From a bacterium (GTDB taxonomy: Bacteria > Elusimicrobiota > Elusimicrobia > Elusimicrobiales > UBA9959), in assembly GCA_021812825.1 (NCBI GenBank), contig JAKAMO010000027.1, positions 1 to 26,824 of the forward strand: a stretch of DNA of 26,824 nucleotides, in the 5' to 3' direction. A model generated the notes under the pieces. That model saw only the letters and a list, made by a program, of their open reading frames with translations, made no database searches and was not told where the DNA came from. Shown here in pieces: positions 5,301-20,395 of the stretch; position 1 is the first letter of the stretch; each line of letters opens with the position of its first letter. Position numbers and translations under genes: made by a program.

Positions 5301-5341
5301 AAAGAAGAAGGGCCCGGTATTCAGCCGGGCCCTTCTTCTTT
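5301..5341. terminator. Strong bidirectional terminator between convergent operons
   Basis: AAAGAAGAAGGGCCCGG (5301-5317) and CCGGGCCCTTCTTCTTT (5325-5341) form a perfect 17-bp stem with a 7-nt loop. The outer A/T-rich arms supply a pyrimidine tail in either direction. It separates the + strand isomerase gene (stop 5282) from the - strand membrane cluster (stop at 5358), so it can serve both. Confidence 0.92.
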
Positions 5342-5357: not shown

Positions 5358-6089
5358 CTAGTGCGCTTCCTCCGCGGAGGGCTTCTTCCCGATCATGCCG
5401 TGCACCAGGAAGTAGAGCACCATCGCGGCCAGTATTATCTGCGTGGCGTAGAAGTTATGCGCGCTGGCCGCGGCGTTCAGCTCGTCGAAGCGGCCGTACA
5501 GCAGCGAGAAGCGGGCCATCACGGTGTTGCCGAAGGCGGCGCCGAAGTAGACCATCAGGAAGTAGATACCGAAGTTGGAGACCTTCTTTACCGCGCCCTT
5601 GTGCTCCACCGAGAAGAAGAAATAGAAGAGCACGCTGATGACGCCGACCGCTATCAGCAGCGCGTTAAAGATGCTGAAGGCCGACATGGAGCCCAGCGCG
5701 GAGAACGGCTTTATCGTGCCGACTATCTGGCTCATGAAGTCGGTGGCCAGGCTGGCGGGCACCACCAGGCCGGCGCCGTAACCCATCAGGAACGTGAAGC
5801 CGTACCTGGAGACCCAGGAGATCTTGGGGATGAACTGCGTCACCAGGGAGAGCCCGAGCACCGCCGGGATCAGGACGCCCCAGTCATGCGGCGCGTGCGC
5901 GAGCGGGTCCCAGACCTTGGGGATCCAGATGTTGTACAGGTAGACCTGGAACCACCAGCCCATTCCGGCGCCGAGGTAGAGGTGCTCGGCTATCTTGAAG
6001 AACGGGTTGTCCTTATAGAGGAAGCTGAAGAGGAATATAGTAAGCCCGGCCGCTATCCAGACGCCGGCGATCATCCATGTTTCTGACAT
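5358..6089 (-). CDS. Uncharacterised polytopic membrane protein (gene 4 of DUF6754-like cluster)
   Basis: I recognise no characterised family. The 243-residue product has about seven hydrophobic helices (near residues 4-23, 37-55, 68-87, 94-113, 129-158, 171-188 and 211-230) and few large loops. The second helix is rich in aromatic residues (GAGMGWWFQVYLYNIW), and polar turns such as HAPHDWG and SLLYGRFDEL separate the others. The start is taken at ATG 6089, which has AGAGGTG just upstream; a GTG two codons earlier is possible. It lies 9 nt after the previous gene of the same operon and is the last gene before the terminator. The packing suggests a subunit of one membrane complex with the three genes ahead of it; no enzyme motif or pore signature was found. 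Confidence 0.75.
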   Translation of the reverse strand: MSETWMIAGVWIAAGLTIFLFSFLYKDNPFFKIAEHLYLGAGMGWWFQVYLYNIWIPKVWDPLAHAPHDWGVLIPAVLGLSLVTQFIPKISWVSRYGFTFLMGYGAGLVVPASLATDFMSQIVGTIKPFSALGSMSAFSIFNALLIAVGVISVLFYFFFSVEHKGAVKKVSNFGIYFLMVYFGAAFGNTVMARFSLLYGRFDELNAAASAHNFYATQIILAAMVLYFLVHGMIGKKPSAEEAH

Positions 6090-6098
6090 AGTCACCTC

Positions 6099-6920
6099 TT
6101 AGAGATACCTGATAACGAGAAGTATGATATTCGACGTCAATATCAGGGCCAGCACCAGCAGGTGGCCGAGGTTAAGCGAGTCTATGCCGGAAGTGCCCTT
6201 GCCCGGCTCTTGTATCAGCGACTCGTACTCCGCCGCGCCCTTCATGCCGCCGATCAGCCCCTTGAGTTGGCCGGTCTGCAGGTAGGGACCGTAACCGGGC
6301 TGGCTGATGGCGGTCACTCCGGCCACCAGCGGCACGTTGTATTTGTCTCCCACCAGCGCCACCCAGCTGTCCAGGATGCTGGTGCCGGTGATGTTGACGA
6401 CCATCGCCATGTCCTTATAGCTCTTGATACCCTTCATTACCGGCAGCGAGCGGGCGTCCTTGCCGTCCTGGTCCTTGTCGTAGATGCCGTAGAAGTCGGA
6501 AGCCATCTGCGTCATCACGGCGGTAGGATTGGCCATGTAGGGGAAGATCGCGTAGTCGGTGCCGTTCACCTTCTTGAACTCTCCGGGCACCTTCTCGAAG
6601 ATCTGCTGTATCAGGCCGGTGGAGCCTGCTATATAGGTCACCACGCCTACGCGCAGGTCCCTGCGGAAAGCGTGCCGGATGACGGCCGTCGCCTGGGGCT
6701 GCAGTTCCGGACGGGTGGACGGGTCGTAGTCGAGAGAGAACAGCACGAACGAGCCCTTAGGCAGCTTGTCCAGCGCCTCGTAGGCGTTGCGCGTGTCCCT
6801 GGCTATCGTCTTGTTCGGCAGCCCTATCGGCCTGATGATAGGAGTAAAAAGCACTATAGCCAGCAACAGGAAGATCCAGCGGCGGTCTATCTTGAAGAAT
6901 TTCTGAAGTATTTCCTTCAT
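6099..6920 (-). CDS. Uncharacterised membrane-anchored protein with a large soluble domain (cluster gene 3)
   Basis: The 273-residue product has one transmembrane helix at each end: WIFLLLAIVLFTPII (about 15-30) and the last 24 residues (about 249-272). Between them is a soluble domain of about 215 residues, presumably periplasmic given the basic N-terminus. The domain shows alternating strand and helix patterns (FVLFSLDYDPST, LRVGVVTYIAGST, GTDYAIFPYMANP, MAMVVNITGTSILDSWVAL), reminiscent of a Rossmann-like or periplasmic-binding alpha/beta fold. A DKDQDGKDA stretch (about 150-158) looks like a calcium-loop sequence, but this is not proven. The gene starts 4 nt after the previous one with AAGGA upstream, so they are co-transcribed. 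It is not a known binding protein by any motif I can see; function unknown. Confidence 0.75.
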   Translation of the reverse strand: MKEILQKFFKIDRRWIFLLLAIVLFTPIIRPIGLPNKTIARDTRNAYEALDKLPKGSFVLFSLDYDPSTRPELQPQATAVIRHAFRRDLRVGVVTYIAGSTGLIQQIFEKVPGEFKKVNGTDYAIFPYMANPTAVMTQMASDFYGIYDKDQDGKDARSLPVMKGIKSYKDMAMVVNITGTSILDSWVALVGDKYNVPLVAGVTAISQPGYGPYLQTGQLKGLIGGMKGAAEYESLIQEPGKGTSGIDSLNLGHLLVLALILTSNIILLVIRYL

Positions 6921-6924
6921 GAAC

Positions 6925-7593
6925 TCAATCCTTACCCATGTACTGTCTTTCGATGCCGAAGATGATCTTCAGCGAGGTGACCACGGTGCCTATAGAGATG
7001 CCTATCATGATGCCCCGCTTGCCGGCCACCGCGGGCACGCTCATGATCCACTCTATGACCTGGTCCACGCCGTAGTGGGTCCAGCCCAGCGCCTTGTCCC
7101 AGACGATCTGGCCCAGCGGCACCTTGCCGAGTATCAGGATGAAGGCCGCCACGAAAAGGACCAGGGCCTGGCCCGACTTGATCCTGAAAGAGCGGTAAGC
7201 GGTGGAGACGATGTAGAACGCGAGCACCGCGAACATCGTGGCGCTGAGGGGGTTGTAGATGGAGCGGAAGGCCCAGCCGAGGGAAGTGACCTGACCCGCC
7301 TCCATCTGCTTGCCGTGCATGAGCACCGCCGGGACCACCATCGCCGCGAAGCCGATGAAGACGAACAGGCTGTATCCCCAGCCGTCGGTCCGGCGGCTGA
7401 TCTTGCTGAAGTGGGAGTAGAACAGGCTTATCAGGCCCAGCAGGAAGGCGAAGGCCGACACGATGTTCTCCCACTTGTTTATCATCTCCAGATAATCGAC
7501 CGAGGTCTTGTTAGGTATATAGTAGGAGGCGACGGTGAACAGGCCCGTCACCACCACTATAGCCAGGGGAATATGTTTTTTGATCAGTTTCAT
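6925..7593 (-). CDS. Uncharacterised six-helix membrane protein (cluster gene 2)
   Basis: The 222-residue product has about six predicted transmembrane helices (near 8-26, 44-62, 74-92, 112-135, 143-159 and 194-214) joined by short charged loops such as FSKISRRTDGWG and YRSFRIKSGQ. No signal peptide, catalytic motif or nucleotide-binding motif is visible and I do not recognise the family. The ATG at 7593 sits 1 nt after the stop of the DUF6754-like gene, so translation is almost certainly coupled. With the two genes after it, it forms an operon of four membrane proteins that share one promoter. A structural or scaffolding membrane subunit is the most that can be said. Confidence 0.75.
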   Translation of the reverse strand: MKLIKKHIPLAIVVVTGLFTVASYYIPNKTSVDYLEMINKWENIVSAFAFLLGLISLFYSHFSKISRRTDGWGYSLFVFIGFAAMVVPAVLMHGKQMEAGQVTSLGWAFRSIYNPLSATMFAVLAFYIVSTAYRSFRIKSGQALVLFVAAFILILGKVPLGQIVWDKALGWTHYGVDQVIEWIMSVPAVAGKRGIMIGISIGTVVTSLKIIFGIERQYMGKD

Positions 7594-7594
7594 A

Positions 7595-8848
7595 TCAGTA
7601 GGCCTTGAAGAGGTTGAGGATGACCTGCACGAAGGAATCCCAGTGCAGCCAGGTGCCGGCGGCCAGCACGATGGCGCCGAAGAACACTGCGAGCATCACC
7701 ACCAGCTTGCCGAAGTCCTGCACCTTGAGGGCGCTCATCAGCATCGGCTCCTTCGACAGGTAGGCGCCGGCGGCGTAAAGCTCCTCTCCGATCAGCGTGT
7801 AGTCGCAGGCGGTGAAGAAGAACGGCAGCTGGTGCTCGATGTCCGTGCCGGCTATCTGGATGGCGCCGGTGGTGGCGCCGACCTCGGCCAGCAGCAGGGA
7901 CTCGGCCATGAAGTAGCCCATGAAGAAGCAGGCCGCGGGTTTCTCACGGGAGATCATGCCGTCCACGGAGGCGGCATAGGAGAACTGGTCGGCGCTGACG
8001 AAGTAGTTCAGGTCCTCGCGGTAGGAGTCCGGCCGGCCGGCTTCGAGGTAGGACTGCTTGACCACCTCTTTGCAGACGGTCATCACGATGGGGTCGTAAT
8101 GCGGCACCTTGATGTAGCTGTCGTACTGCGCCACCTTCTTGGAGACCTCGCCCAGGATGAACGTGGAGGCGATGGTGGAGATGGTGCTCATAGTGCCTAT
8201 GCCGGGGCAGTAATAGATGGGTTTGCCCATCTCGGTGGCGCGGCCTATGGCCTCGTCGATGGCGTCGAGGCCGGCGATGCGGCGGATGAACAGGCCCTTG
8301 CGCTTGGCGTGCGAAACGGCCATGAAGAACACCACAACAATGACGATGAGCAGCAGCAGGTTGTTGAGACGGTCCAGGCGGAACCAGTTGCCGCGCGGCG
8401 AAGCTTTGAGCGGCTCGGACTCCGCGTACTGCTTGCCTTTCCTGAGAGCGGCCACTTTCAACCCGAAGACGGTCCCGGGCTTGAATTCCCCGAAGAAATC
8501 GGCCAGCTCCACCTTGACGGCGTGCTCGGCGGCGCCGCCGTTCCAGGCCCAGAAGGGCAGATCGATATCCTTGCCCTTATTAGCGGAAGCCGCGAAATCC
8601 GCGGCCTTGATCCAGCCGCCGTTCTCCTGCGAGGAGACGAACACCTGGTAGGAAGCGTCGGCGTCGTCGGCGGGATTGACGGGCCAGCGCAGCAGCAGCG
8701 CGTTGCCTACGTCGTACGGCATATCAGCGGCGGTAACGCCCAGCAGCGGCGCGTCCGGAGCTTTCGGAGCGGCCGGCTTGGCCGCGTTCAGCGGGGCCGC
8801 CGCCAGCAGCAGCGGCAGCAGCATGAAGATGGATCGGTTATATTTCAT
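7595..8848 (-). CDS. DUF6754-like membrane protein with FN3-like ectodomain (cluster gene 1)
   Basis: The 417-residue product has a signal peptide (residues 1-22), a fibronectin-III-like ectodomain (about 32-150), a transmembrane helix (about 161-180), a conserved soluble domain (about 186-375) and a second hydrophobic helix (about 381-398). The soluble domain contains FIRRIAGLDAIDEAIGRATEMG (187-208, split by my count), GAIQIAGTDIEHQLPFF (328-344) and CDYTLIGEELYAAGAYLS (348-365). From memory this matches proteins annotated DUF6754 in Armatimonadota, Chloroflexota and similar phyla; I could not confirm it by search. It leads a four-gene operon whose later genes are polytopic or anchored membrane proteins. 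The function is unknown; the order outside-domain, membrane, inside-domain suggests a sensor or the core of an envelope complex. Confidence 0.75.
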   Translation of the reverse strand: MKYNRSIFMLLPLLLAAAPLNAAKPAAPKAPDAPLLGVTAADMPYDVGNALLLRWPVNPADDADASYQVFVSSQENGGWIKAADFAASANKGKDIDLPFWAWNGGAAEHAVKVELADFFGEFKPGTVFGLKVAALRKGKQYAESEPLKASPRGNWFRLDRLNNLLLLIVIVVVFFMAVSHAKRKGLFIRRIAGLDAIDEAIGRATEMGKPIYYCPGIGTMSTISTIASTFILGEVSKKVAQYDSYIKVPHYDPIVMTVCKEVVKQSYLEAGRPDSYREDLNYFVSADQFSYAASVDGMISREKPAACFFMGYFMAESLLLAEVGATTGAIQIAGTDIEHQLPFFFTACDYTLIGEELYAAGAYLSKEPMLMSALKVQDFGKLVVMLAVFFGAIVLAAGTWLHWDSFVQVILNLFKAY

Positions 8849-8936: not shown

Positions 8937-9938
8937 TTAAACGTAGGGGCAGGCGGCGAAGTGACCCGGGGACTTCTCCTGAAGCTCGGGGACATGGTCC
9001 GCGCATTCCGGGCACGCTATCGGGCAGCGCGTCCTGAAGCCGCAGCCGGAAGGCTTGTTCAGCGGGCTGGGGACATCTCCCTTAAGGATGATGCGCTCGC
9101 CCCTGCGCTTGTACGGATCGGGCTGGGGGGCGGCGGAAAGCAGGGCCTTGGTATACGGATGGACAGGGTTCTTATTTACGTCATGGCTGCTGCCTATCTC
9201 CACCATGTTGCCCAGGTACATTACGGCTATCCGGTCGCTGATATGCTCTACCACGGCCAGGTCGTGCGCCACGAAAAGGTAGGTAAGGCCGAACTCATCC
9301 TGCAGGTCCTGGAGCAGGTTGATGATCTGGGCCTGTATAGAGACGTCGAGGGCGGAAACGGGCTCGTCGGCTATTATGAAGGCCGGGTTTGTGGCCAGCG
9401 CCCGGGCCAGGCCGATACGCTGGCGCTGCCCGCCCGAGAACTCATGGGGATAGCGGGAGGCGTAGGCGGCCTGCAGGCCCACCTTCTCCAGCAGCCAGGC
9501 CACCTTCGCCTTCTTCTCCCTGCGCTTCATCTCCGGCTTGTGGATATCTAGAGGCTCCTCTATGATGGCCTCCACGGACATGCGCGGGTTGAGGGAGGAA
9601 TAAGGGTCCTGGAAGACCATCTGCATGCGCGAACGGAACGGGCGCATGGCGGCGCGGCCGAGGTTGGCGATATCGACCATTTTGCCGGCGGCGTCCGGGA
9701 ACATTATGCTGCCGGAGCTTACCGGGGCGAGACTGATGAGGGCTTTGCCCACCGTGGTCTTGCCGCAGCCCGACTCGCCCACCAGGCCCAGCGTCTCGCC
9801 GGTCTTCAGGGAGAAGGAGACGCCGTCCACGGCCTTAACCTCGCCCACCTTCTTCATGAAAAGGCCGCCATGTATAGGGAAATGGACCTTGAGGTCCTTC
9901 ACGTCGAGCAGATCGCCGCCGGACCGGGACTTCGTCAT
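8937..9938 (-). CDS. Oligopeptide ABC transporter ATP-binding protein (OppF/DppF type)
   Basis: This is the second ATPase of the peptide importer and powers uptake across the inner membrane. The 333 residues carry Walker A GESGCGKT (54-61), the signature FSGGQRQR (about 167-174), Walker B FIIADEP with the following SALD, and the H-loop VAHDL. The C-terminal oligo_HPY region follows, with NPVHPYTKALLSAAP and a cysteine cluster (CGFRTRCPIACPEC, about 298-311) typical of OppD/OppF proteins. Its ATG at 9938 overlaps the stop of the first ATPase by 4 nt (ATGA). In E. coli the Yej ATPase halves are fused in YejF; here they are two genes. It is the last gene of the five-gene operon. Substrate preference cannot be read from the ATPase. 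Confidence 0.93.
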   Translation of the reverse strand: MTKSRSGGDLLDVKDLKVHFPIHGGLFMKKVGEVKAVDGVSFSLKTGETLGLVGESGCGKTTVGKALISLAPVSSGSIMFPDAAGKMVDIANLGRAAMRPFRSRMQMVFQDPYSSLNPRMSVEAIIEEPLDIHKPEMKRREKKAKVAWLLEKVGLQAAYASRYPHEFSGGQRQRIGLARALATNPAFIIADEPVSALDVSIQAQIINLLQDLQDEFGLTYLFVAHDLAVVEHISDRIAVMYLGNMVEIGSSHDVNKNPVHPYTKALLSAAPQPDPYKRRGERIILKGDVPSPLNKPSGCGFRTRCPIACPECADHVPELQEKSPGHFAACPYV

Positions 9939-10939
9939 GACCTGTCCTCCCCGCGCGCCTTGCAGAGATGGCAGCGCACCTGCCTTCCGGGGGAGACCTC
10001 TACGAGCTCCGGCTCCTCCTGGCGGCAGATGTTCATGACCTCCGGACAGCGGTTATTGAACTTGCAGCCCCTGGGGAAACTGAAAATGTCCGGTACCATG
10101 CCCTCTATGACAGGCAGGCGCTTGCCTGGTTCGTTCTTGAAGCCGGGCAGCGAGCGCAGCAGGCCCTTGGTATAGGGGTGCAGCGGTTCATCGAAGAGCG
10201 GCTTGACGTCGGAGACCTCCTGGATCTTGCCTCCGTACATCACGGCGACCCGCTGGCAAGTCTCGGCCACTACGGCCATGTCGTGGGTTATAAGCAGTAT
10301 CGCCGCGTCATGAGTCTTCTTCTTTACGTCCAGCATCAGGTCGAGTATCTGGGCCTGTATCGTCACGTCCAGGGCGGTGGTGGGCTCGTCGGCTATCAGC
10401 AGCGCGGGGTCCGAGGCCAGCGCCATGGCGATCATCACTCGCTGGCGCATACCGCCGGAGAACTGGTGCGGGTAATCATTCAGGCGGGCCTTCGGGGAAG
10501 GGATGCCTACCAGCCCCAGCATCTCCACGGCCCGCTCCTCCACCTGCTTCTCGGTCAGGTCCTGGTGGAAGCGGATGGCCTCCTTGAGCTGCCAGCCTAT
10601 CGAGAAGACCGGGTTCAGCGAGGTCATCGGCTCCTGGAAGATCATCGAGATGTCCTTGCCTCTTACCTTGCGCATCTCCGGGTAGGAGAGCTTCAGCAGG
10701 TCCCTGCCGCGGAAGTTTATCTCGCCGTGCGTGATCTCGCCCGGCGGATTAGGGATAAGGCGCAGTATGCTCAGGGCGGTCACGGATTTCCCGCAGCCGG
10801 ACTCCCCGACTAGGCCCAGCACCTCGTTCTCGAATATATGGAAGTCCACGCCGTCCACCGCGCGCGCGGTCCTGTCCTCCACGCGGAAGGCCGTCTTCAG
10901 GCCCTTCACTTCCAGCAGCTTCTTCTTTTCAGCCGTCAT
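9935..10939 (-). CDS. Oligopeptide ABC transporter ATP-binding protein (OppD/DppD type)
   Basis: This is the first ATPase of the peptide importer. In the 334 residues Walker A is GESGCGKS (45-52), the Q-loop is [11 protein letters not shown], the signature is FSGGMRQR (160-167), Walker B is LLIADEP (180-186) with TTALD after it, and the H-loop is ITHDM. The C-terminal oligo_HPY segment ([13 protein letters not shown]) and a cysteine pattern ([14 protein letters not shown], about 295-308) match the OppD family. The ATG at 10939 shares one base with the permease stop (TGATG). It pairs with the following OppF-type gene as a heterodimer under the YejB/YejE-like permeases. Confidence 0.93.
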
Positions 10940-12321
10940 CAGCGCAACCTCGAGAAGACCTTGGGATCGAAAGCCTCGCGCACGGCTTCGCCTATCTGCA
11001 CCACAAGGAACAGCGTGGCGGCCAGCGCTATCGACGGCGTAAGTATAAGATTGGGGTAATACTTCAGGTACTGCATGCCCTGGCTCATCAGCGTGCCCCA
11101 GCTGGGCGTGCCGACCGGCAGGCCGAAGCCGAGGTAGTCCAGCGAGACCAGCGAGCCGATGAAGGCGACTATGGAGAAAGGCGCGAAAGTGACCACCGGC
11201 ACCAGCGAGTTGGGCAGGATATGCTTCATCATCACGGACCAGTCCGTGGCACCCATCGCCTCGGCGGCGTGCACGTAGTCCCTGGCCTTCTCGCGGTAGA
11301 ACTCGCCGCGCATGTAGTAGGTCATGCCCAGCCAGGCCTGCAGCGCCACCAGCAGGGCGGCCAGCATCCAGAAGCCGGGCTGCACTATGGAGGCGATGAT
11401 CATTATCATGAACAGGAACGGGATGGAGCCCCAGATCTCGATGAAGCGCTGTATCAGGATGTCCGTCCAGCCTCCGAAATAGCCCATGACGCCGCCTACG
11501 ATAATGCCAATGACGTATCCGATAAAAGCCACCATCAGCGCGAAGGAGAGGGAGATACGGAACCCGTAGACCAGCTGCGCGAAGACGTCGGCGCCGGAAT
11601 CGTCCACCCCCAGTATGTGCTGGCGGCCGGGGGGATAGGGCGGACTGCCGTCCCGGTCGAGCAGATGCTCGCTCGGCGAATAAGGGTAGAGCGGCATCAA
11701 TATGAACGCCTTGCCGGCGGCGAAAGCCTCCCTGGTCTTATTTACCAGAGCGATGTCGGTCTCTACGGCCGGGACTATCTCCTTCAGGTCGGCATAGTCC
11801 TGCTTCTCGTCCGCCGTGGAGCCTGGCCGGGCGCCGTACCCGGCTACCTGCCTCCTGAAACCGTCCAGCTCCTCGTTGAGCTCAGCTATCCGCCGGTCAA
11901 AAACGGAAGGGTCCTTCAATTCCGCAGCGAAAAGCCGGTAATCCACCTGGCCGTCGCCCACCTGGCCGAAATCGGACTCCACGTCTATATGGCTGAAATC
12001 CCTGAAAGGCAGCATCGTGTTGGCCCAGTCGCGAAAAGCGGGGAAGGCTATATGCCCCTCGTAGCGTATCGCCAGCGGCTTGTTGTTGACCAGGAACTCG
12101 AGGAAGAACGACGTAACGAACAGCGTGGTGATGATAAGGAAGGAATAGTGGCCGCGCTTCATCGTCCTGAAGCGCTTGAAACGCTTCTGCCAGTGCGGGG
12201 AGGGCTTCATGTCGAAGCCCAGCTTCTTCCCGGCCTCAACGAACAGGAAGGGGAGCGCCCTGTGCGTCAACAGGTGGCCGGCGGCGAGGACAAGAGCTGC
12301 GCCCAGAACTTTTAATATCAT
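10939..12321 (-). CDS. yejE: YejE-like peptide ABC transporter permease with enlarged periplasmic loop
   Basis: This inner-membrane permease pairs with YejB to form the peptide channel. HWQKRFKRFRTMKRGHYS (43-60), the first family helix, NNKPLAIRYEGHIAFP (79-94) and ILGVDDSGADVFAQLVYGFR (236-255) follow the E. coli YejE order closely, as do the later EAMGA-loop region and the GEAVREAFDP end. At 460 residues it exceeds YejE (341) and OppC (about 300). It has an extra N-terminal hydrophobic segment (1-28), and the periplasmic segment between TM1 and the core (about 79-245) includes a charged, coiled-coil-like stretch (about 140-205). ATG 12321 overlaps the yejB stop by 4 nt. The frame is open further upstream, but that part lies within yejB and does not resemble the family. 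Confidence 0.88.
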   Translation of the reverse strand: MILKVLGAALVLAAGHLLTHRALPFLFVEAGKKLGFDMKPSPHWQKRFKRFRTMKRGHYSFLIITTLFVTSFFLEFLVNNKPLAIRYEGHIAFPAFRDWANTMLPFRDFSHIDVESDFGQVGDGQVDYRLFAAELKDPSVFDRRIAELNEELDGFRRQVAGYGARPGSTADEKQDYADLKEIVPAVETDIALVNKTREAFAAGKAFILMPLYPYSPSEHLLDRDGSPPYPPGRQHILGVDDSGADVFAQLVYGFRISLSFALMVAFIGYVIGIIVGGVMGYFGGWTDILIQRFIEIWGSIPFLFMIMIIASIVQPGFWMLAALLVALQAWLGMTYYMRGEFYREKARDYVHAAEAMGATDWSVMMKHILPNSLVPVVTFAPFSIVAFIGSLVSLDYLGFGLPVGTPSWGTLMSQGMQYLKYYPNLILTPSIALAATLFLVVQIGEAVREAFDPKVFSRLR

Positions 12322-13364
12322 TTGCCGAACCTTATCCGCGGGTCTATCATCGCCCAGATAACGTCGGAGAAGATATTGCCGGTCAGGCGTATCAGCACCC
12401 CGAAGACCATGATCCCCAGAAGGACGGGGTAATCGCGCTGGATGATGGACATGTAGCCCAGCAGGCCCATGCCGGGGATATTGCAGATCTTCTCGATAAG
12501 GAAGGACCCGGCGAACAGGACGCCCAGCGCCTGGCCTATACCCACGGTAAGAGGTATCAGGGAGTTGCGCATCGCGTGCACGAAGATGACGCGCTTCTCG
12601 GAAAGGCCTTTCGCGAAGGCGGTGCGCACGTAGTCCGCGCCCAGGTTGTCCAGCAGGGAGTTCTTCATCAGTATCGTCATCGACGCGAAGCTGCCTATCA
12701 GATAGCCGATGATGGGAACTATGGTGTGGTGCAACTGGTCCAGCACCTTGCCCGCCAGGCTCAGCTGGGCCCAGTCGGCGGACCTGAAGCCGCCCAGAGG
12801 CACGAGGTTCCAGAAGCTGCCGCCGCCGAACAGCACCAGCAGCAGCAGGCAGGCCACAAAGCCGGGGATGGAATAGCCCATGAACACCAGCACCGACGTA
12901 GCGGTGTCGTAGCCCGTCTTGTGCTTGATCGCCTTGCTTACGCCCAGCGGCACGCAGACCAGCCACGAGGCGAAATAGCCGATGAGACCGAAATAGACGG
13001 AAATGGGGAACTTGGAAATTATCACGTCCAGCACAGGCTCGCCGTGCACGTAGGAGCGGCCGAAGTCCAGGCGCATTATTCCCCAGAGCCAGCCGGCGTA
13101 GCCCACCGGGATGCTCTTGTCCAGGTGGTAATACTCCTTCAGTTCCTTCATGGCCTCCTCGGGGATCTGCTGCTCGGACTCCTCGCTGGCCATGCCCGCC
13201 GCGCCGCCCTCTCCCATCATCTGCATCTTGATCTGCAGCTGGGCCTGTTCGATAGGACCACCGGGAACGACGCGGAACACGGCGTAGACCATGAAGGTTA
13301 TGGCTATGAAAGTCACCGGTATCAGCAGCACCCGGCGGATGAAATAAGTCGTCATTCCGTGCAT
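12318..13364 (-). CDS. yejB: YejB-like peptide ABC transporter permease
   Basis: This is the first permease subunit of the importer, a binding-protein-dependent transport protein of the inner membrane. TM1 (about 11-30) is followed by VVPGGPIEQAQ and a polar insert (about 44-75) that YejB has and OppB lacks. Then come IRFDFG-like MRLDFGRSYVHG, the transmembrane core, the EAA-like loop (TAFAKGLSEKRVIFVHAMRNSL), GLLGYMSIIQRDYPV, and the YejB-type end DVIWAMIDPRIRFGK. The 348 residues fit YejB (364). The gene begins 5 nt after the binding-protein stop; ATG 13364 is used here, but ATG 13355 (three codons later, starting MTTYFIRR) is equally plausible and lines up better with relatives. Confidence 0.9.
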   Translation of the reverse strand: MHGMTTYFIRRVLLIPVTFIAITFMVYAVFRVVPGGPIEQAQLQIKMQMMGEGGAAGMASEESEQQIPEEAMKELKEYYHLDKSIPVGYAGWLWGIMRLDFGRSYVHGEPVLDVIISKFPISVYFGLIGYFASWLVCVPLGVSKAIKHKTGYDTATSVLVFMGYSIPGFVACLLLLVLFGGGSFWNLVPLGGFRSADWAQLSLAGKVLDQLHHTIVPIIGYLIGSFASMTILMKNSLLDNLGADYVRTAFAKGLSEKRVIFVHAMRNSLIPLTVGIGQALGVLFAGSFLIEKICNIPGMGLLGYMSIIQRDYPVLLGIMVFGVLIRLTGNIFSDVIWAMIDPRIRFGK

Positions 13365-13369
13365 AGGTC

Positions 13370-15160
13370 TTATTTACCTTCCGCCCACGGGTCCTGGTCC
13401 GTGACCCCTACCGGCAGCTTGGCGCCTTTCTCCATCGCCTCGTCCAGGGCCTTTTCCTTCCGGGGATCCAGCCACCACATCGTGGTTATATCCGAAGCGT
13501 CCCCTATCTTGGAGAAATACCGCTCCGGGTGGCCGAACCTGTCGTAGTACATCACCCGGCTGAAATTGGAGGTCCAGGCCAGGGCGTAGGGATAGGCCCT
13601 GAAGATCAGACCGTCTATCTTGTGAACGAGCTTTATCTGCGTCTTCCTGTCCGTGGCCAGGTCGTATTCGCTGCAGAGTTCGTCGACCTCCTTGTTCTTG
13701 AAGCCGGGGGTATTGTTGTTGTTCAGGGTATCGGCCAGGTCCGAACCCCAGGAGCTGATCGGGTTGGGGAACAGTATCGCGCCCCAGGGCTGGAACGCTA
13801 TGGTGAAGTTGCGCTCCCCTATCTTCTTCATCAGCGTGGCCGGGTCGATGAGCTTCAGGTTGAACTTTATTCCGGCGCGCTGGTAGTCCTCCTGGATCAC
13901 CTTGAAGATCCGGTCCCAGCTGGGCCAGCCGTACTCCAGCGTGACCTCGAAGATCTCGCCCTTGTCGTTGACCAGCCAGCCGTCCTTGTTGCGCTTCTTC
14001 CAGCCGGCCCTGGCCAGCAGCAGGCGGGCCATGCGCGGGTTATAGCGCACCTTCGGGTTGTCCGGGTTCGCCCAGATGCTGCCGGGGAAATAGCTGTCTA
14101 TCGGAGTGTACTGGTTGAAGAAAAGCTTCTCATTGAGGCGCTTGCGGTTGAGCAGGTAGGCGAAGGCCTTGCGGACGTTGCGGTCGTTGAACGGGGGCTT
14201 GCGCATGTTGAACGCGAAGCCGGTGGCGCCCTGCGGGGCGCCGGTGATTATCTTGCGCTTCTGTATCCAGCCGTCCTTGACCTTGTCGAAGTCGCATTCC
14301 TGCGCCCAGCGCTGCGCCTTGCTTACCACGTAGTAATCCAGCTCGCCCTTCTTGAACTTCTCCCAGGCCAACTCCTCGTCCAGGATCACCTGCCAGGTGA
14401 TCCTGTCGAAATTATAGAGGCCGGTATTGTGACGCTCGCCCCAGCCCCAGTAATCCTTCCTGCGGGTGAGGGTCACGGATTCCTGGTTCTTGATGTCCTC
14501 AGGCTTCAGTTCGTAGGGCCCGGAACCCATCTGCATCTTCCAGTTGTAGTCCGAAAGGTATTTCTCGCCGGTCAGCTTCCCCATTTCCTTTGCCGGATAG
14601 ATGGCCATGCCGCCGAAATAAAGGAAAAGGCGCCAGTGGACCTTCTTCGTGTGCACGGTGACGACACTGGGGCTCACCACCACAGGCTTGTCGTAGCTGC
14701 CGCCCCACATCATCAGGGAATAAGGATCCTTGATGTCCTTGCGGGTACGGAATTCCCACGTAGCCACAACGTCTTCTGCGGTGACAGGACTGCCGTCCGC
14801 CCAGCGCGCCTTCGGGTTTATATGGAAATAGAACGTGCGCTTGTCAGGGGAGATCTTCCAGTAGTCCGCCAGACCCGGCATGTATTCCAGAGTTTCAGGA
14901 TGCAGCCCGACCAGCGCTTCGTAGACAAGACCCTGCATCTGGCTGAGCGTGGAAAGGTTGGAGTTCGGGCCCTCGGTGCGCAGCGTAGGGGGGAAGGAGG
15001 TCCAGAAGAAACGAAGCGTGCCGCCCTTCACGGCTTGGGGTGAACCTATCAGCGGGAAATCCCTGCTGGTCTCCCAGCCGGCGGGGTTGAAGTCATCGGC
15101 CGCGGCGAAAGCGGCACTGAAGAAAAGCAGGGCGGAGAGAATTATCCTGGTTCTCGGCAT
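13370..15160 (-). CDS. yejA: YejA-like oligopeptide-binding protein (SBP family 5)
   Basis: This periplasmic receptor captures peptides and delivers them to the YejB/YejE-type channel. The 596-residue length is close to E. coli YejA (604). A signal peptide spans residues 1-20 (LFFSAAFAAA), and the SBP_bac_5 signature runs through VYEALVGLHPETLEYMPGLA and RWADGSPVTAEDVVATWEF. Later, FAFNMRKPPFNDRNVRKAFAY is the typical family-5 lobe-II motif in its YejA-like form. The start is set at ATG 15160 because the signal peptide begins there; the frame extends 18 codons upstream but that part runs through the promoter region and back into the end of the glycosyltransferase gene. First gene of the five-gene operon. 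YejABEF relatives import peptides, including microcin C in E. coli; the substrate here is unknown. Confidence 0.88.
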   Translation of the reverse strand: MPRTRIILSALLFFSAAFAAADDFNPAGWETSRDFPLIGSPQAVKGGTLRFFWTSFPPTLRTEGPNSNLSTLSQMQGLVYEALVGLHPETLEYMPGLADYWKISPDKRTFYFHINPKARWADGSPVTAEDVVATWEFRTRKDIKDPYSLMMWGGSYDKPVVVSPSVVTVHTKKVHWRLFLYFGGMAIYPAKEMGKLTGEKYLSDYNWKMQMGSGPYELKPEDIKNQESVTLTRRKDYWGWGERHNTGLYNFDRITWQVILDEELAWEKFKKGELDYYVVSKAQRWAQECDFDKVKDGWIQKRKIITGAPQGATGFAFNMRKPPFNDRNVRKAFAYLLNRKRLNEKLFFNQYTPIDSYFPGSIWANPDNPKVRYNPRMARLLLARAGWKKRNKDGWLVNDKGEIFEVTLEYGWPSWDRIFKVIQEDYQRAGIKFNLKLIDPATLMKKIGERNFTIAFQPWGAILFPNPISSWGSDLADTLNNNNTPGFKNKEVDELCSEYDLATDRKTQIKLVHKIDGLIFRAYPYALAWTSNFSRVMYYDRFGHPERYFSKIGDASDITTMWWLDPRKEKALDEAMEKGAKLPVGVTDQDPWAEGK

Positions 15161-15177
15161 TTGTCCCGTATAAAATA
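15161..15177 (-). promoter_or_regulatory. Candidate promoter of the yej-like operon
   Basis: The 37-nt gap between the glycosyltransferase stop and the yejA-like ATG is AT-rich. On the minus strand TATTTT (15177-15172) lies 11 nt before the ATG and the overlapping TTATAC lies 7 nt before it. Either would give a very short or missing leader. Both match TATAAT only partly, so this is tentative. Confidence 0.3.
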
Positions 15178-15197
15178 GCAAATATCCCGGAGGTCTC

Positions 15198-17378
15198 CTA
15201 GGGTCTGGCGTCAATATTCTTCATTATTATCTCCTTCATGACGTCGAAAGCCGGCGCGGTCCCGGGAGGCAGCTTGTCGGCCAGCTCGTACACCTCTATC
15301 CGGTTGAAGACGCGCCCGCCCTCGGTCTCGCTGAAGGAGAAGACGCCGCGCACGTGCCTGGCCCAGAAGTCGGAGAAGACGGCGCGGGCCCTGGCATCCC
15401 AGTAGAACATACGGTAATCGCGGCCCAGCCGGATCGAGTCCGCGGGATTGAGCAGTATGTGGGTCACGCCGTCCCTGCGCAGGCTGGCGTAAAGGTCGTC
15501 GCCGCTTACGGCGGCAGAGGAATACTCCACTATCGCCGTCCGGTCGTAGACGGAACTGACGATGAAGTCGCGCTTCAGGTAAAAGCTCTTCTCATCGCCT
15601 ATCATCAGGACCTTTGAACCGGGCGGCGTATGCTCGTTGATGAACTTTATCCCGGAATAGCAACTGTAAGGATAGGTCGGCTGGCTGTGGGAGAGATAAT
15701 CCTCGGCGGATACCGCCCCGGTCAGCGGCCGCCAGCGGCCCTGAGTGTAGAAGATGTAGGCCGCCCAGTAGAGCGCCGCCAGACAGGAGGCTATGACCGC
15801 CCCTTTGAGCAGGTTTTTCAGCGCCCTATGGCCGCCGGAGAACAAGTAGACGGCCAGCAGCAGACCCGCGGCCGGGTAGGCAGGCATCATGAAGCGCACC
15901 ATAGTGGTGGATACCGACCAACCGGCCCAGACGGTCAGAAAGAAGGTCCAGAGGGAGGCGACGGCCGCGCCGGCAGGAGCGCCCAGCAGGAACAGCAGCG
16001 GCAGGAAGGCCAGAAAGAGGGGGGTAAAGAACTCCGAATTCGGGACCTGACCCATCGTCACTTTCCACGGGGTCAGCAGCCAGCTCGAAGGGGTCAGGTG
16101 CCCCATCTGGGCCGCTTGACTTATGAAATCCTTCAGCTTCTGCGGATCGGCGCTCGACCCGGTGCCGAACAGGCCCGAGCCGAAAGGGAACACCGGGTTG
16201 CCGGTATAGAGCCAGTTCTTGACCAGCCAGGGCCCTGTGAAGACCGTGGCGATAAAAGTGAAGAGCGCCAGGTTGCGGAAAGCCGTACCGGGCCTGGAAC
16301 GGTCGGACCAGGCGTAGGCCAGCATGACTCCTGCGGTCGGGAAAAAACCCGTATATTTGACGCCCATGGCCAGGCCGCAGAACACGGCGGCCAGCCAGAG
16401 CGGCCTGTCGTCACCGGCCGCGCGCAAGAGCGCCGCGTACAGGCCCAGCGTCGAGAACAGCATCAGCAGCGACTCGGTGCCGGACGACCAGGAAGCGAAC
16501 ATCGCGTGGCATACCGTATAGGATATCAGCGCGCCCCAGAGGCCGGCCCGCAGCGACAGGAAGCGGACGCCGAAAGCCAGGGCCGCGGCGGCCGTAAGGA
16601 CGCCGGCGGAATAGTTGACGAACTTCGCGAGCGGCGCGCCCTTCAGCAGCAGGGCCGCGGCATAGATCATGCCGTGCGTGAACGGCAGGTCGGAATAGAA
16701 ATTGTACGGCATCGGCGCGAAGCCGTGCATTATCACGAAGAAGTTTGGGACGGCCAGATGATAGACCAGCGCGTCGTAGAAGATCTCCGGGGCCAGCGCG
16801 CCGGCCAGGTTGAGCAGCATGGCCAGCAGCAGGACTCCCAGCGCCGCGAGGTCCCACGGGCCGAGCTCGCCCGGCGCCGCCTCCACCGGCGGCAGCGGGC
16901 TGCCGCGCAGCTGCCAGGCCCCCAAGGCCAGGGCGGCCAGCATCAGGAGCGCCACAGGCCAGAGATACAGGACCTTGAGCGTCGCCAGGACGAAGACATA
17001 AGCGGCCAGCAGGCCCAACCCGGCCCCGCAGGAGAAAACCGACTCTTCCAGCGCCCCGCGGAAGGAAAGGCCGGCGGCCCTGAGCGCGGCGCGGCCCAGC
17101 GAGAAGCAGGAAAAAAGGAACGCGGCCGCGGCCAGCAGGTTGAGCAGATGCCCGGGCAGTACGGAGACCAGCCCGGCGGTGTACTGCTCCGGCGCCAGCA
17201 TGGCCGACAGCGCGTCCAGCCGGGGCATGAACTTCGAATAGTAGGACTTCAGGACGAAGGCGGCCCAGCCGCCCGCGACAGGCCAGACCAGCCAGGAGGG
17301 GAAACGGGGCTTTTCCTCCGCCGGCCGCGCGGAAGGCTGAGGGACGGGCTGCCGTTCTTTCCTGTGTCTTTTGGCCAT
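15198..17378 (-). CDS. GT-C family glycosyltransferase, polytopic membrane protein
   Basis: The protein probably transfers a sugar from a polyprenyl-phosphate donor to a lipid or protein on the outer face of the inner membrane. The 726 residues have a basic, proline-rich cytosolic N-terminus (1-27), about a dozen hydrophobic helices between 30 and 560, and a soluble C-terminal domain (about 575-726). The segment PEIFYDALVYHLAVP (197-211), after a hydrophobic helix, is the acidic DxxxYHL loop motif seen in ArnT/PMT-like GT-C proteins. The C-terminal domain has repeated strand patterns (KVLMIGDEKSFYL, GVTHILLNPADSI). No acceptor can be named and no other glycan gene is adjacent. A terminator-like hairpin ends just before its ATG, and no Shine-Dalgarno is visible, so its expression is unclear. 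Confidence 0.75.
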   Translation of the reverse strand: MAKRHRKERQPVPQPSARPAEEKPRFPSWLVWPVAGGWAAFVLKSYYSKFMPRLDALSAMLAPEQYTAGLVSVLPGHLLNLLAAAAFLFSCFSLGRAALRAAGLSFRGALEESVFSCGAGLGLLAAYVFVLATLKVLYLWPVALLMLAALALGAWQLRGSPLPPVEAAPGELGPWDLAALGVLLLAMLLNLAGALAPEIFYDALVYHLAVPNFFVIMHGFAPMPYNFYSDLPFTHGMIYAAALLLKGAPLAKFVNYSAGVLTAAAALAFGVRFLSLRAGLWGALISYTVCHAMFASWSSGTESLLMLFSTLGLYAALLRAAGDDRPLWLAAVFCGLAMGVKYTGFFPTAGVMLAYAWSDRSRPGTAFRNLALFTFIATVFTGPWLVKNWLYTGNPVFPFGSGLFGTGSSADPQKLKDFISQAAQMGHLTPSSWLLTPWKVTMGQVPNSEFFTPLFLAFLPLLFLLGAPAGAAVASLWTFFLTVWAGWSVSTTMVRFMMPAYPAAGLLLAVYLFSGGHRALKNLLKGAVIASCLAALYWAAYIFYTQGRWRPLTGAVSAEDYLSHSQPTYPYSCYSGIKFINEHTPPGSKVLMIGDEKSFYLKRDFIVSSVYDRTAIVEYSSAAVSGDDLYASLRRDGVTHILLNPADSIRLGRDYRMFYWDARARAVFSDFWARHVRGVFSFSETEGGRVFNRIEVYELADKLPPGTAPAFDVMKEIIMKNIDARP

Positions 17379-17447: not shown

Positions 17448-18572
17448 TTATTTCTCGAGCACCTCTATGTTGGCGCGGGGGACCACTATGACCTCGCCGC
17501 CGTCCAACTTCACCTCGAGCACGCGGGCGTGCGATTCGCTGCCGATGACCGTGAGCTCCGGAGGCAGCGACTTCACGGTGCCGATCACGCCGAAATGCGG
17601 CTCCCGGATGATCCGTATAGGGTCGCCGGGCTCTATCCACCCGCGCCCCTGGTCCCGCTTCACCTCGCTGACGCCTTTCGGCATGCCCGGGACGATGATC
17701 TCGGGGCGCATGACTCCCGCGCGTATCTGCGTGGCGCCGGACACGGAAGCATGCTCGCCGTTGCGGGAGCTGAGCAGCTTGAAGGTGTACTCGGCCATCG
17801 GGATCATGCCGAAGCCCTCTGTCACGACCAGCGTGGTGCCGATCTTCTCGGAGCCCGTGACGGCTACCCCTATATCGTAGCCGAGCAGCTGGCGCAGGTC
17901 GCGGTCGTGTATGCCGCCGACGACTATCGCGTTGACGCCCAGCTCGATGGCCCGCTGTATGGTGGCCAGGCTGGCGTGCTTGCCGCCCACCACGATCTTC
18001 CCGCGGTGGTGCTCCTTGATGGCCTCCGCCTCGAGTTCCTCGTCGGGGCTTTCAACAGCCACGCAGATCTCGCCGTTGGTCTCGCCGCCGATGCCGAAGA
18101 TCCCCTGTATGAAGGTGCCTTCGGCCTCCACAGTCACTCCGAAGCCGGGAGTGATCTCGACGATCTTGCCCTTCACGTAGGCCTTCACAGGCAGGACCTT
18201 CGGTGGCTCGCGCAGCAGGACCTGGCCCGTCACCGGTGAGATGGATTCCACCGTGCCGGCGACCGGCGACTCTATGGAGGTCTTGAACCATTTCAGGAAA
18301 GGCTTGTTCTCGGCGATCACCTCTCCGGCGGCGACCGTATCTCCTTCCCTCTTCAGCATGAAGCCCGGGATCTCCTCGGGCGACACGGCGAGCCGGTTGG
18401 CGACGTTGACCGAGAACACCTTGCCGGGCAGCTCGGTCTGGGCCACCACGTCCAGCGCGTCCACGCAGGCGCCCATCTCGGCCATCACCTTTCCCGGGAT
18501 AGGCAGCAGGCGCTTCTTGTGCAGCATCGTGCTGGGCATTACCTTGAGTCCTGGAGTATACGCATGAGCCAT
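17448..18572 (-). CDS. MutL-associated protein with barrel-sandwich and KOW-like regions
   Basis: I recognise no characterised function. The 374-residue soluble protein has no signal peptide. Residues 70-125 (MLKREGDTVAAGEVIAEN, SPVAGTVESISPVTGQVL) look like a lipoyl/RnfC-type barrel-sandwich hybrid, but without a lysine in the usual biotinyl/lipoyl turn. Residues 190-300 form an alpha/beta stretch (GKIVVGGKHASLATIQRA, GVNAIVVGGI, GVAVTGSEKIGTTLVVTEGFG). Residues 313-340 (IEPGDPIRIIREPHFGVIGTV) read as a KOW motif. The gene starts 29 nt after the MutL-like stop with AGGAG 7 nt before its ATG, so the pair is an operon. A helper or partner of the MutL-like ATPase is the likely role, inferred from position only. 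Confidence 0.75.
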   Translation of the reverse strand: MAHAYTPGLKVMPSTMLHKKRLLPIPGKVMAEMGACVDALDVVAQTELPGKVFSVNVANRLAVSPEEIPGFMLKREGDTVAAGEVIAENKPFLKWFKTSIESPVAGTVESISPVTGQVLLREPPKVLPVKAYVKGKIVEITPGFGVTVEAEGTFIQGIFGIGGETNGEICVAVESPDEELEAEAIKEHHRGKIVVGGKHASLATIQRAIELGVNAIVVGGIHDRDLRQLLGYDIGVAVTGSEKIGTTLVVTEGFGMIPMAEYTFKLLSSRNGEHASVSGATQIRAGVMRPEIIVPGMPKGVSEVKRDQGRGWIEPGDPIRIIREPHFGVIGTVKSLPPELTVIGSESHARVLEVKLDGGEVIVVPRANIEVLEK

Positions 18573-18601: not shown

Positions 18602-20395
18602 TCAGACGGGGTACATCCCCATTGCCTTGTACCATTTGGCCAGGTCGGCCCGGCGCTTCGCGGGCTCCTTGGACAGGTTGAACGGCCGGCCGCGGCCGTC
18701 GAGCACCAGGCCCACCACCCCGCCCTCTATCTCCGCCTCCAGCTTGTTGCCGGGGCCGGCGCCCATGTCGAAGCCCTTGGCGGGCCTGGCCACCAGCTTG
18801 GCCTTCGGAGCGGCCAGCGGGACATGCTGCATATCGCCGAAGCGGAGCTGCCCGTTCTCACGGCTGCCGTCGGGACAGGTGATCTCCCACTCCATTATCA
18901 CCTGGCCTTCCTTGGCCAGGCCCTTCGGGGCCAGGCAGGTGCCGAGCCGCACGAGGCAGTCGTGGTAGAACACGTCGAGCGCCGCCTTCTCGCTGATCTG
19001 GGCGAGCACGCCGAGGTGCGGCATCATGAAGATGGAGTCCACGGCCATGCGCGTGACGCCCTCGGGCTGGTAGGCGTCTATCATCAGCATCATAGACTGT
19101 GTGCGGCGGGGGGAATGGGCGAGGATTCCGCCCGAGCCTATCACGTAGTCCAGCCGCATCACGTTGATCAGGCTCTGGCCGGAGGAGGTCTGCTCGAACG
19201 CGTCGGAGATCGAGCGCTCCTGCTGCACGCCCTTCAGGCCCACGGCGAGGGCCTTGTGTTGCTCGAAGGCCAGCCGCAGCGCCTCGCGGGCCGCGGAGTG
19301 CTCAATCTGCAGGTCTTCCACCGTCTGCGGTATCGTGGTGGGTCGGATCATCTTGTTCTTCAGGCGGTCGCGCAGGTCCTGCTCGTCTATATCGAACGGC
19401 AGCCAGCGCAGGATGTTCGGCAGGCCGGCCTCGGCCATCACGTTGGAGATGGAATAGCTCATGCCCAGGTTGGCGCTGACGGTGCGGTTGAACACCTCGT
19501 CGAAGACGCTGAACACGTCGGTGGTCGCGCCGCCGATATCTACGGCCAGCACGTTGAACTTATTGGCCTTCGCGAACTTCTCGGTCATCGTGCCGACGGC
19601 TGCCGGCGTGGGCATGATCGGGGCGCCTACCATTTTCATCAGCCTGGGGTAGCCGGGCGCCTGCTGCATCACGTGCTCGAGGAAGATGTCGTGGATCTTG
19701 TGGCGCGCCGGCATCAGGTTCTCTCGCTCCAGCGTGGGCCGCAGGTTTTCGGTCAGGATCAGAGCGGTGCCCTCGCCCAGGATGTCCTTTATCTGCTGGT
19801 GGGCCTTATTGTTGCCGGCGTAGATGACCGGGAGCTTGTAGGAGGCGCCCAGGCGCGGCTTCGGGTCCGCGGCCTTCAGGAACTGCGCCAGCTCCACCAC
19901 GTGCGTCACGGTGCCGCCGTCGGTGCCGCCTGAAAGCAGCATCATGTCGGGGCGCAGCTGGCGGATGCGTTCGATCTTCTCGTGGTCGGCGCGGCCGTCG
20001 TTGGAGGCCAGCACGTCCATCACTATCGCGCCGGCGCCGAGCGCGCAGCGCTGGGCCGATTCGCCGGTCATAGCCTTCACGGCACCCGCCACCATCATCT
20101 GCAGGCCGCCGCCCGCGGAGGACGTGGAGACGTAGATGTCGGCGCCGGTGAGGCCGACGTTGGGGGTGATTATCTTCTCGCCGTCCAGCAGCTTGCGCCC
20201 GGACAGTTCCTCGACCTCGGTTATCGCGTTGAGGACGCCCTTGGTCACGTCCTCGAACGGAGCTTCCACCGTGGTGGGGGCCTCGCCACGGAAGGTCTGG
20301 CGGTAAGTATCGCCCTTCTTCTCGATCAGGATGGCCTTGGTGGTCGTGCTCCCGCAGTCCGTGGCTATTATGGTTTCAAGGTCTTTCTTTGACAT
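18602..20395 (-). CDS. MutL/GlmL-family ASKHA ATPase (putative B12-mutase reactivase)
   Basis: GlmL/MutL proteins are sugar-kinase/Hsp70-fold ATPases found with adenosylcobalamin-dependent carbon-skeleton or amino mutases, thought to help reactivate them. The 597 residues show phosphate-1 DCGSTTTKAIL (13-23), TSSAGGGLQMMVAG (91-104), LLSGGTDGGTVTHV (153-166), the phosphate-2 motif LAVDIGGATTDVFSV (283-297) and a late VIGSGGILAHSP adenosine motif. The length matches the family (about 460-620). The ATG at 20395 lies inside the end of the preceding small gene (20-nt overlap) with AAGGA 9 nt upstream. No glutamate mutase, aminomutase or B12 gene lies in the window, so its client is either elsewhere or of a new kind. 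Confidence 0.88.
   Translation of the reverse strand: MSKKDLETIIATDCGSTTTKAILIEKKGDTYRQTFRGEAPTTVEAPFEDVTKGVLNAITEVEELSGRKLLDGEKIITPNVGLTGADIYVSTSSAGGGLQMMVAGAVKAMTGESAQRCALGAGAIVMDVLASNDGRADHEKIERIRQLRPDMMLLSGGTDGGTVTHVVELAQFLKAADPKPRLGASYKLPVIYAGNNKAHQQIKDILGEGTALILTENLRPTLERENLMPARHKIHDIFLEHVMQQAPGYPRLMKMVGAPIMPTPAAVGTMTEKFAKANKFNVLAVDIGGATTDVFSVFDEVFNRTVSANLGMSYSISNVMAEAGLPNILRWLPFDIDEQDLRDRLKNKMIRPTTIPQTVEDLQIEHSAAREALRLAFEQHKALAVGLKGVQQERSISDAFEQTSSGQSLINVMRLDYVIGSGGILAHSPRRTQSMMLMIDAYQPEGVTRMAVDSIFMMPHLGVLAQISEKAALDVFYHDCLVRLGTCLAPKGLAKEGQVIMEWEITCPDGSRENGQLRFGDMQHVPLAAPKAKLVARPAKGFDMGAGPGNKLEAEIEGGVVGLVLDGRGRPFNLSKEPAKRRADLAKWYKAMGMYPV

What the first reader, a model, noticed from the sequence alone, without database searches (positions are those of the whole stretch)
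5358..8848. Four-gene operon of uncharacterised membrane proteins headed by a DUF6754-like protein
Four genes are packed with gaps of 1, 4 and 9 nt behind a single promoter and end at a strong terminator. Seen: gene 1 has a signal peptide, FN3-like ectodomain, TM helix, about 190-residue conserved soluble domain and a C-terminal helix; gene 2 has about six helices; gene 3 has a 215-residue soluble domain between two end helices; gene 4 has about seven helices. None carries a known catalytic or transport motif. The mix of polytopic subunits, an anchored soluble domain and a two-sided receptor-like protein suggests one envelope complex of new type. DUF6754 membership is from memory.
Basis: partly seen in the sequence, partly recalled or inferred. 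Interest (0 to 1): 0.75.

Follow-up and report, generated by a model that had tools for sequence, protein, structure and literature searches.

The report
Unrecognised four-protein amino-acid uptake system
Four neighbouring membrane-protein genes of unknown function, kept together in the same order across many bacterial phyla, look like a new kind of uptake machine for amino acids and related small molecules, because some relatives are switched by RNA sensors for tryptophan, tyrosine or lysine.

Summary
The four genes are real (g1 7595-8848, g2 6925-7593, g3 6099-6920, g4 5358-6095, minus strand). g1 is DUF6754 (E 3e-111); g2-g4 match no Pfam or NCBIfam family above cut-off. The order g1-g2-g3-g4 is complete in 72 of 73 uncut copies of a first survey, in Elusimicrobiota and many other phyla. 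Ten Bacillota genomes carry 9-27 DUF6754 matches each. Pointers to import: (1) four Bacillota copies sit directly behind T-box leaders, three reading UGG (Trp), one UAC (Tyr), and a fifth behind a lysine riboswitch; in the Tyr copy and one Trp copy only g1-g4 follow. (2) Other copies adjoin amidohydrolase, M20 or creatininase genes and IclR or RpiR regulators. (3) Charges place one Rossmann-like domain on each side of the membrane. An 'RnfC-like' protein occurs in 51 of 51 genomes with the system and 4 of 20 without; with a MutL-family protein it adjoins the cluster in several phyla, and both lie upstream in this window. Transport is inferred, not shown; the window member's substrate is unknown.

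The parts
7595..8848 (-). g1: signal peptide, FN3-like ectodomain, TM helix, DUF6754 domain, C-terminal TM helix (417 aa)
   Evidence: ORF; PF20539 E 3.2e-111; model pLDDT 88.1
8399..8734 (-). FN3-like ectodomain of g1 (about residues 39-150); no room for it in the Bacillota g1 of 254-267 aa read
7655..8395 (-). DUF6754 match of g1 (residues 152-398): TM helix, Rossmann-like domain, start of the last helix; domain predicted cytoplasmic
6925..7593 (-). g2: polytopic membrane protein, 222 aa, no known family
   Evidence: follows g1 in the conserved order
6099..6920 (-). g3: TM helix, Rossmann-like domain predicted outside, TM helix (273 aa)
6210..6800 (-). soluble domain of g3 (about residues 41-237), candidate substrate-binding part (inference)
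   Evidence: model pLDDT 92.6
5358..6095 (-). g4: polytopic membrane protein, 245 aa, no known family
   Evidence: conserved residues in an alignment of 11
5301..5341 (-). terminator hairpin behind g4, between it and the convergent PpiC gene
17448..18572 (-). RnfC-like protein, 374 aa: weak barrel-sandwich and KOW-like similarity; likely partner
   Evidence: 51 of 51 system-positive against 4 of 20 negative genomes; adjacent in several phyla
18602..20395 (-). MutL-family protein (PF13941; ASKHA superfamily by recall), 597 aa; possible partner ATPase
   Evidence: E 1.2e-126; both phosphate-type motifs in the window copy

Best explanation
g1-g4 encode one multi-subunit importer of small amino-acid-like solutes. 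g2 and g4 form the membrane path. g3 holds a Rossmann-like domain outside the membrane, tethered at both ends, that would capture the substrate. g1 holds the strongly conserved DUF6754 Rossmann-like domain inside, which would gate or couple transport. In Bacillota the cluster has multiplied and different copies took different substrates: Trp, Tyr and Lys by their RNA leaders, and amide or peptide compounds by their operon partners. Shown: the conserved unit, the leaders, the gene neighbours, the folds as predicted models. Inferred: transport itself, its direction (inward), the part each subunit plays. The window member's own substrate is unknown.
For: Order g1-g2-g3-g4 complete in 72 of 82 g1 copies in loci L001-L079 (9 of the others cut by an end, 1 truly incomplete), 40 of 43 in L080-L119, 21 of 22 in L150-L169; the sets share some genomes. 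T-boxes directly upstream (72-115 nt) on the same strand of 4 of 183 clusters in 24 genomes, matched by eye; about 0.15 expected, p 2e-5. Specifiers: UGG in L085, L097 and L104 (read from sequence); UAC in L170. Lysine riboswitch (84.8 bits, cut-off 30) and a terminator-like hairpin before g1 in L089; this is 1 of 22 lysine riboswitches in 46 genomes. In L097 and L170 no other same-strand gene follows g4 in my gene calls. Amidohydrolases within 2 kb of clusters: 10 against 3.3 expected, p 0.002. Operon-type partners: amidohydrolase-like proteins, M20 peptidases, creatininases, IclR, RpiR. The Trp clusters L085 and L104 of two genomes are sisters with support 1.0 and both have an amidohydrolase-like gene behind g4; the nearest other g1 to L097 is that of L085 (48%).
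Against: No transport was measured and no member resembles a known transporter in sequence. Leaders were found on only 5 copies, all in Bacillota, and 3 of these are in one genome (G026: L085, L097, L089); the lysine case alone is weak (p 0.016). L097 (87.3 bits) and L104 (82.1) are below the T-box gathering score of 93. Amidohydrolase enrichment is modest (14 against 6.6 within 4 kb, p 0.008) and uses 150 of 258 matches. The TPP riboswitch in L156 and the cobalamin riboswitch in L164 do not precede the cluster. Four further T-boxes lie behind clusters. The window has no Rfam leader. Exceptions to the order: L072, L107, L108, L119, and a fragment in L150.
Confidence: 0.68

Rival explanations
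1. A membrane sensor or regulator of amino-acid and peptide catabolism: the outer g3 domain senses the solute and the inner DUF6754 domain passes the signal on.
For: One Rossmann-like domain on each side of the membrane; RCK-type fold match of the inner domain; catabolic neighbours. Some signalling genes are near clusters: 2 of 77 neighbour proteins match Response_reg and 1 EAL, and a histidine kinase lies behind the creatininase in L158.
Against: Two polytopic subunits are more than a sensor needs. T-box and lysine-riboswitch control of a cluster standing alone fits supply of the amino acid better than sensing it. Response regulators are not enriched: 0 against 2.4 expected within 2 kb, 3 against 4.7 within 4 kb.
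Confidence: 0.13
2. An exporter of amino acids or metabolites.
For: The same subunit anatomy would serve; families that include exporters (MFS, MatE) occur among the neighbours.
Against: By established knowledge T-boxes switch genes on when the charged tRNA runs short and lysine riboswitches switch them off in excess lysine; both fit supply, not export.
Confidence: 0.06
3. A membrane-bound enzyme complex (for example for amide or peptide bonds) rather than a transporter.
For: Strong conservation of the DUF6754 domain; Rossmann folds often bind nucleotides; hydrolase neighbours.
Against: No known catalytic family for g1-g4 by Pfam and NCBIfam; PDB sequence searches with g1 and g3 gave nothing meaningful; nearest structures of g3 are unspecific Rossmann folds.
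Confidence: 0.1

Closest known systems
Pfam PF20539 DUF6754
   Same: g1 is a clear member (371 bits)
   Different: the Pfam entry gives no function; the constant partners g2-g4 have no family
Amino-acid transporters under T-box control (MFS, APC, NSS, DAACS, LIVCS, NhaC and ABC families; Wels et al. 2008, PMC2494555, passages seen)
   Same: same logic: the specifier codon predicts the amino acid
   Different: none of g1-g4 matches these families in Pfam above cut-off; this would be a further kind
ABC and tripartite (TRAP, TTT) importers (architecture recalled)
   Same: separate membrane subunits and an outer domain that could bind substrate; copies with different substrates
   Different: no ABC ATPase and no DctM/DctQ or TctA/TctB match among the four; the outer domain is tethered by a helix at both ends
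ECF group II transporters (recalled)
   Same: many substrate units could share one energy module: DUF6754 matches outnumber MutL matches in all ten multi-copy genomes
   Different: no ECF component was matched in g1-g4; the module would be MutL plus RnfC-like, not EcfA and EcfT
MutL of glutamate mutase operons (PF13941; role recalled)
   Same: the partner is a clear family member
   Different: about 600 aa, longer than the 450-position profile, and paired with an RnfC-like protein

Membership tests
DUF6754 (PF20539) | profile score over the curated cut-off | tested here: met
   371 bits against 27
ABC transporter | ABC ATPase among the four proteins | tested here: not met
   no ABC_tran in g1-g4; the Opp ABC genes upstream in the window are so placed in only 7 of 51 Elusimicrobiota loci
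TRAP or TTT transporter | DctM/DctQ or TctA/TctB membrane subunits | tested here: not met
   no such Pfam match in g2 or g4 in a list up to E 10 (HMMER's filters drop most very weak matches)
ECF transporter | EcfA, EcfT or known S-component family | tested here: not met
   none among the matches of g1-g4
RCK/TrkA regulatory domain | RCK fold and sequence profile | tested here: inconclusive
T-box-regulated amino-acid transporter | T-box leader directly upstream with a readable specifier | tested here: met
   in 4 Bacillota relatives: UGG in three, UAC in one; not seen in the window
T-box-regulated amino-acid transporter | measured amino-acid transport | not testable with these tools
   needs an uptake assay
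Anti-phage defence system | match to a PADLOC model | tested here: not met
   no match for g1-g4 or the two partners

The most novel reading that the evidence does not exclude
The full machine is six kinds of protein: the four membrane subunits plus a MutL-family ASKHA ATPase and an RnfC-like adaptor that power it. This would be a primary transporter driven by an actin/hexokinase-type ATPase instead of an ABC cassette, with one or a few such power modules shared by many substrate-specific membrane units in one cell.
Probability: 0.2. Interest if true: 0.95.

Novelty: categorically new. Interest (0 to 1): 0.82.

Why it matters
If right, a whole class of importers has been overlooked. One query found 7995 homologues of g1 among the 8000 candidates scored. 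Ten Bacillota genomes of 1.4-3.8 Mb carry 9-27 DUF6754 matches each, so models of what these bacteria take up would miss a main route. The RNA leaders give ready substrate predictions, so the claim can be tested with one labelled amino acid. If MutL turns out to power it, a new way of energising membrane transport would be found.

Tried and rejected
Homology of g1 and g3: the two models show the same order of helices and strands between two membrane helices, but profile comparison does not support common descent (probability 1.3%, 15.3%), so it is not claimed. g2 against g4 and the other pairs: nothing.

Thiamine link: L156 has thiD- and thiM-type genes behind the cluster, but the TPP riboswitch lies between g4 and thiD. 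Cobalamin: the riboswitch in L164 lies downstream. Four T-boxes just behind clusters (G132:C29, G124:C11, G144:C19, G021:C18) were not counted as evidence.

Opp link: Opp genes lie between the partner genes and g1 in the window but are so placed in only 7 of 51 Elusimicrobiota loci, some of which are too short to tell, so they are not used as evidence. MutL alone does not discriminate: 11 of 20 system-negative genomes match PF13941.

What was dropped or not seen; 120 of 126 DUF6754 matches used (6 fragments or partial rows left out); 150 of 258 Amidohydro_1 matches (the tool's table was cut); 101 of 107 Response_reg matches (6 below the cut-off left out); 71 of 89 SBP_bac_5 matches (partial pieces and weak rows left out); 63 of 65 matches used; the T-box table (156 matches) was cut, so some were not seen. 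Neighbour scans took only genes of 180 aa or more within 3 kb, two per side; all 152 were scanned, but only the 25 commonest families are shown. Rfam leaders were sought directly in 43 of the 47 multi-copy loci L080-L106 and L150-L169. Gene calls are my own longest-frame picks, not a gene finder.

Literature: no paper holds DUF6754 or PF20539; none holds three of my five system terms. PMC2494555 and PMC3766115: passages seen. Vitreschak et al. 2008 is not held; nothing of it was seen but its listing in a reference list.
Full report
Observation. The window encodes four tightly packed minus-strand genes ending at a strong hairpin. g1 is a DUF6754 protein; g2, g3 and g4 have no Pfam or NCBIfam family above cut-off. 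The window comes from an Elusimicrobiota genome, judging from the names of its nearest relatives; no whole genome is held for it.

Conservation of the unit. A scan of species genomes with g1 gave 79 loci: 51 are or closely resemble Elusimicrobiota (some are labelled only 'bacterium'); the others are labelled Latescibacterota, Eisenbacteria, TA06, WOR-3, Stahlbacteria, Poribacteria, Zixiibacteriota, Phycisphaerae, Delongbacteria, Caldipriscus, Fimbriimonadia, Bacillota, Symbiobacteriaceae and Clostridiales, and one only 'bacterium'. With profiles grown from the window proteins the order g1-g2-g3-g4 on one strand is complete in 72 of 82 g1 copies; 9 run into a contig end (under 1,500 nt left) and 1 (L072) lacks g3 and g4. 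In multi-copy genomes it is complete in 40 of 43 (L080-L119) and 21 of 22 (L150-L169) copies; the sets overlap in some genomes. The first scan used two short conserved peptides and kept the best 80 of 90 matches, so distant members were missed, and some labels may be misbinned.

Expansion. The 28 genomes taken through the loci hold 1 to 27 DUF6754 matches each (they were chosen for having it). In a sample of 121 genomes of the class of G026 (a genome labelled Bacillota) 46 have it. Ten hold 9 to 27 matches in 1.4-3.8 Mb, fragments included. None of the 14 control genomes has it. A family that multiplies this way while keeping all four genes behaves like a substrate-specific device.

RNA leaders. 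Rfam scans of 43 Bacillota loci showed a lysine riboswitch (L089) and a T-box (L085) directly in front of g1. Genome-wide scans added T-boxes in front of g1 in L097 and L170 and L104. Aligned to the Rfam model, the specifier reads UGG in L085 and L097 and UAC in L170; L104 was read by eye as UGG in the same motif. So three Trp and one Tyr. The reading of the specifier position in the model is my own. L085 and L170 score over the gathering score of 93; L097 (87.3) and L104 (82.1) below. In L097 and L170 no further same-strand gene follows g4 in my gene calls; in L089 a gene, probably MatE by its sequence, starts 124 nt behind g4. Wels et al. 2008 (PMC2494555, passages seen) use this logic to assign substrates to transporters and name seven transporter families under T-box control; they also report 8% of T-boxes before genes of unknown or unrelated function. 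PMC3766115 (passages seen) ranks amino-acid transporters third among T-box targets, after tRNA synthetases and biosynthesis genes, so a T-box alone does not prove transport.

Gene neighbours. Among proteins near Bacillota clusters amidohydrolases are the commonest family: 7 of 77 and 4 of 75 proteins match Amidohydro_1. In ten genomes 10 of 150 listed amidohydrolases lie within 2 kb of a cluster against 3.3 expected (p 0.002), and 14 against 6.6 within 4 kb (p 0.008); controls gave 0 against 2.4 and 3 against 4.7 (Response_reg) and 0 against 1.6 and 1 against 3.3 (SBP_bac_5). Apparent operon partners (same strand, under 200 nt) include amidohydrolase-like proteins (L085, L092, L094, L098, L104), M20 peptidases (L098, L103), creatininases (L158, L168), a beta-lactamase-like hydrolase (L095), an Xaa-Pro dipeptidase-like protein (L075) and IclR and RpiR regulators (L156, L158) (several of these names rest on matches below the NCBIfam cut-off). 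Many other clusters have no such partner. The creatininase-linked clusters L158 and L168 of two genomes fall in a clade of four with L091 and the lysine cluster L089 (support 0.997); the Tyr cluster is not close to the Trp clusters in that tree.

Anatomy. The g1 model (pLDDT 88) shows an FN3 domain, a membrane helix, a Rossmann-like domain and a last helix. The g3 model (pLDDT 92.6) shows helix, Rossmann-like domain, helix. Charges near the helices of the window proteins and of a few relatives put the g1 domain inside and the g3 domain outside. An outer binding domain and an inner gating or coupling domain are inference.

Partners. In Elusimicrobiota the cluster usually follows a MutL-family gene and an RnfC-like gene on the same strand, with other genes between; RnfC-like was found in 30 and MutL in 28 of 51 loci, many of which are short, and in L034 and L046 the pair lies on the other side. 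The pair is also just upstream in L051 (one gene between the two), L063 and L070; in L070 the RnfC-like gene overlaps g1 by 4 nt. In Bacillota with 1-3 copies the order is g1-g2-g3-g4-MutL-RnfC-MutL-RnfC, read directly in five genomes (L175-L179) and seen by coordinates in two more, G060 and G092. In multi-copy genomes the pair can stand alone (L182, L187). RnfC-like occurs in 51 of 51 system-positive and 4 of 20 negative genomes at E 0.001; at E 1e-90 these are 50 of 51 (G010 has only partial matches) and 2 of 20. Fisher p is 7e-10 for the 31 positives of the Bacillota class against 4 of 20; relatedness was not removed. MutL occurs in 50 of 51 positives (G019 none, G013 below the cut-off) but also in 11 of 20 negatives. 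Of 52 MutL-like proteins 42 have the first and 45 the second phosphate-type motif as I wrote them (some are cut). The RnfC-like profile weakly resembles biotin-carrier and KOW domains. DUF6754 matches outnumber MutL matches in all ten multi-copy genomes, so a shared module is possible; RnfC-like matches do not show this in G054 (13 against 9). Whether the pair powers the system is open.

Verdict. The best reading is a new kind of importer for amino acids and related solutes; the window member's substrate remains unknown. Transport has not been shown.

Noticed in passing
window 8937-15214: A full Opp/Dpp-type ABC operon lies directly upstream of g1 on the same strand; 7 of 51 Elusimicrobiota loci have Opp genes there.
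   Followed up: partly
window 15198-17378: 726-aa protein without Pfam match, found beside the cluster only in Elusimicrobiota among the loci searched.
   Followed up: partly
L175 9285, L176 8638, L177 8495, L179 8732: A further short reading frame of 96-172 aa lies between the two MutL-RnfC pairs in Bacillota; could be another component.
   Followed up: no
L051 9436-11450: Two g3-like genes in a row in a Latescibacterota cluster.
   Followed up: no
L029, L079, L081: Two g1 clusters in tandem within one locus; the second of L079 is cut by the contig end.
   Followed up: no
L064, L067, L068 (WOR-3): A gene starts 1-13 nt behind g4; in L064 and L067 it matches TolB_N and PD40 propeller repeats.
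   Followed up: partly
G132:C29, G124:C11, G144:C19, G021:C18: T-box matches just behind clusters, on the same strand; what they control was not read.
   Followed up: no
L097 461-1759: A serpin gene (PF00079, E 1e-112) in a Bacillota genome.
   Followed up: no
L107, L108, L119 (WOR-3): Incomplete clusters: g1 with only one or two partners, or alone.
   Followed up: no
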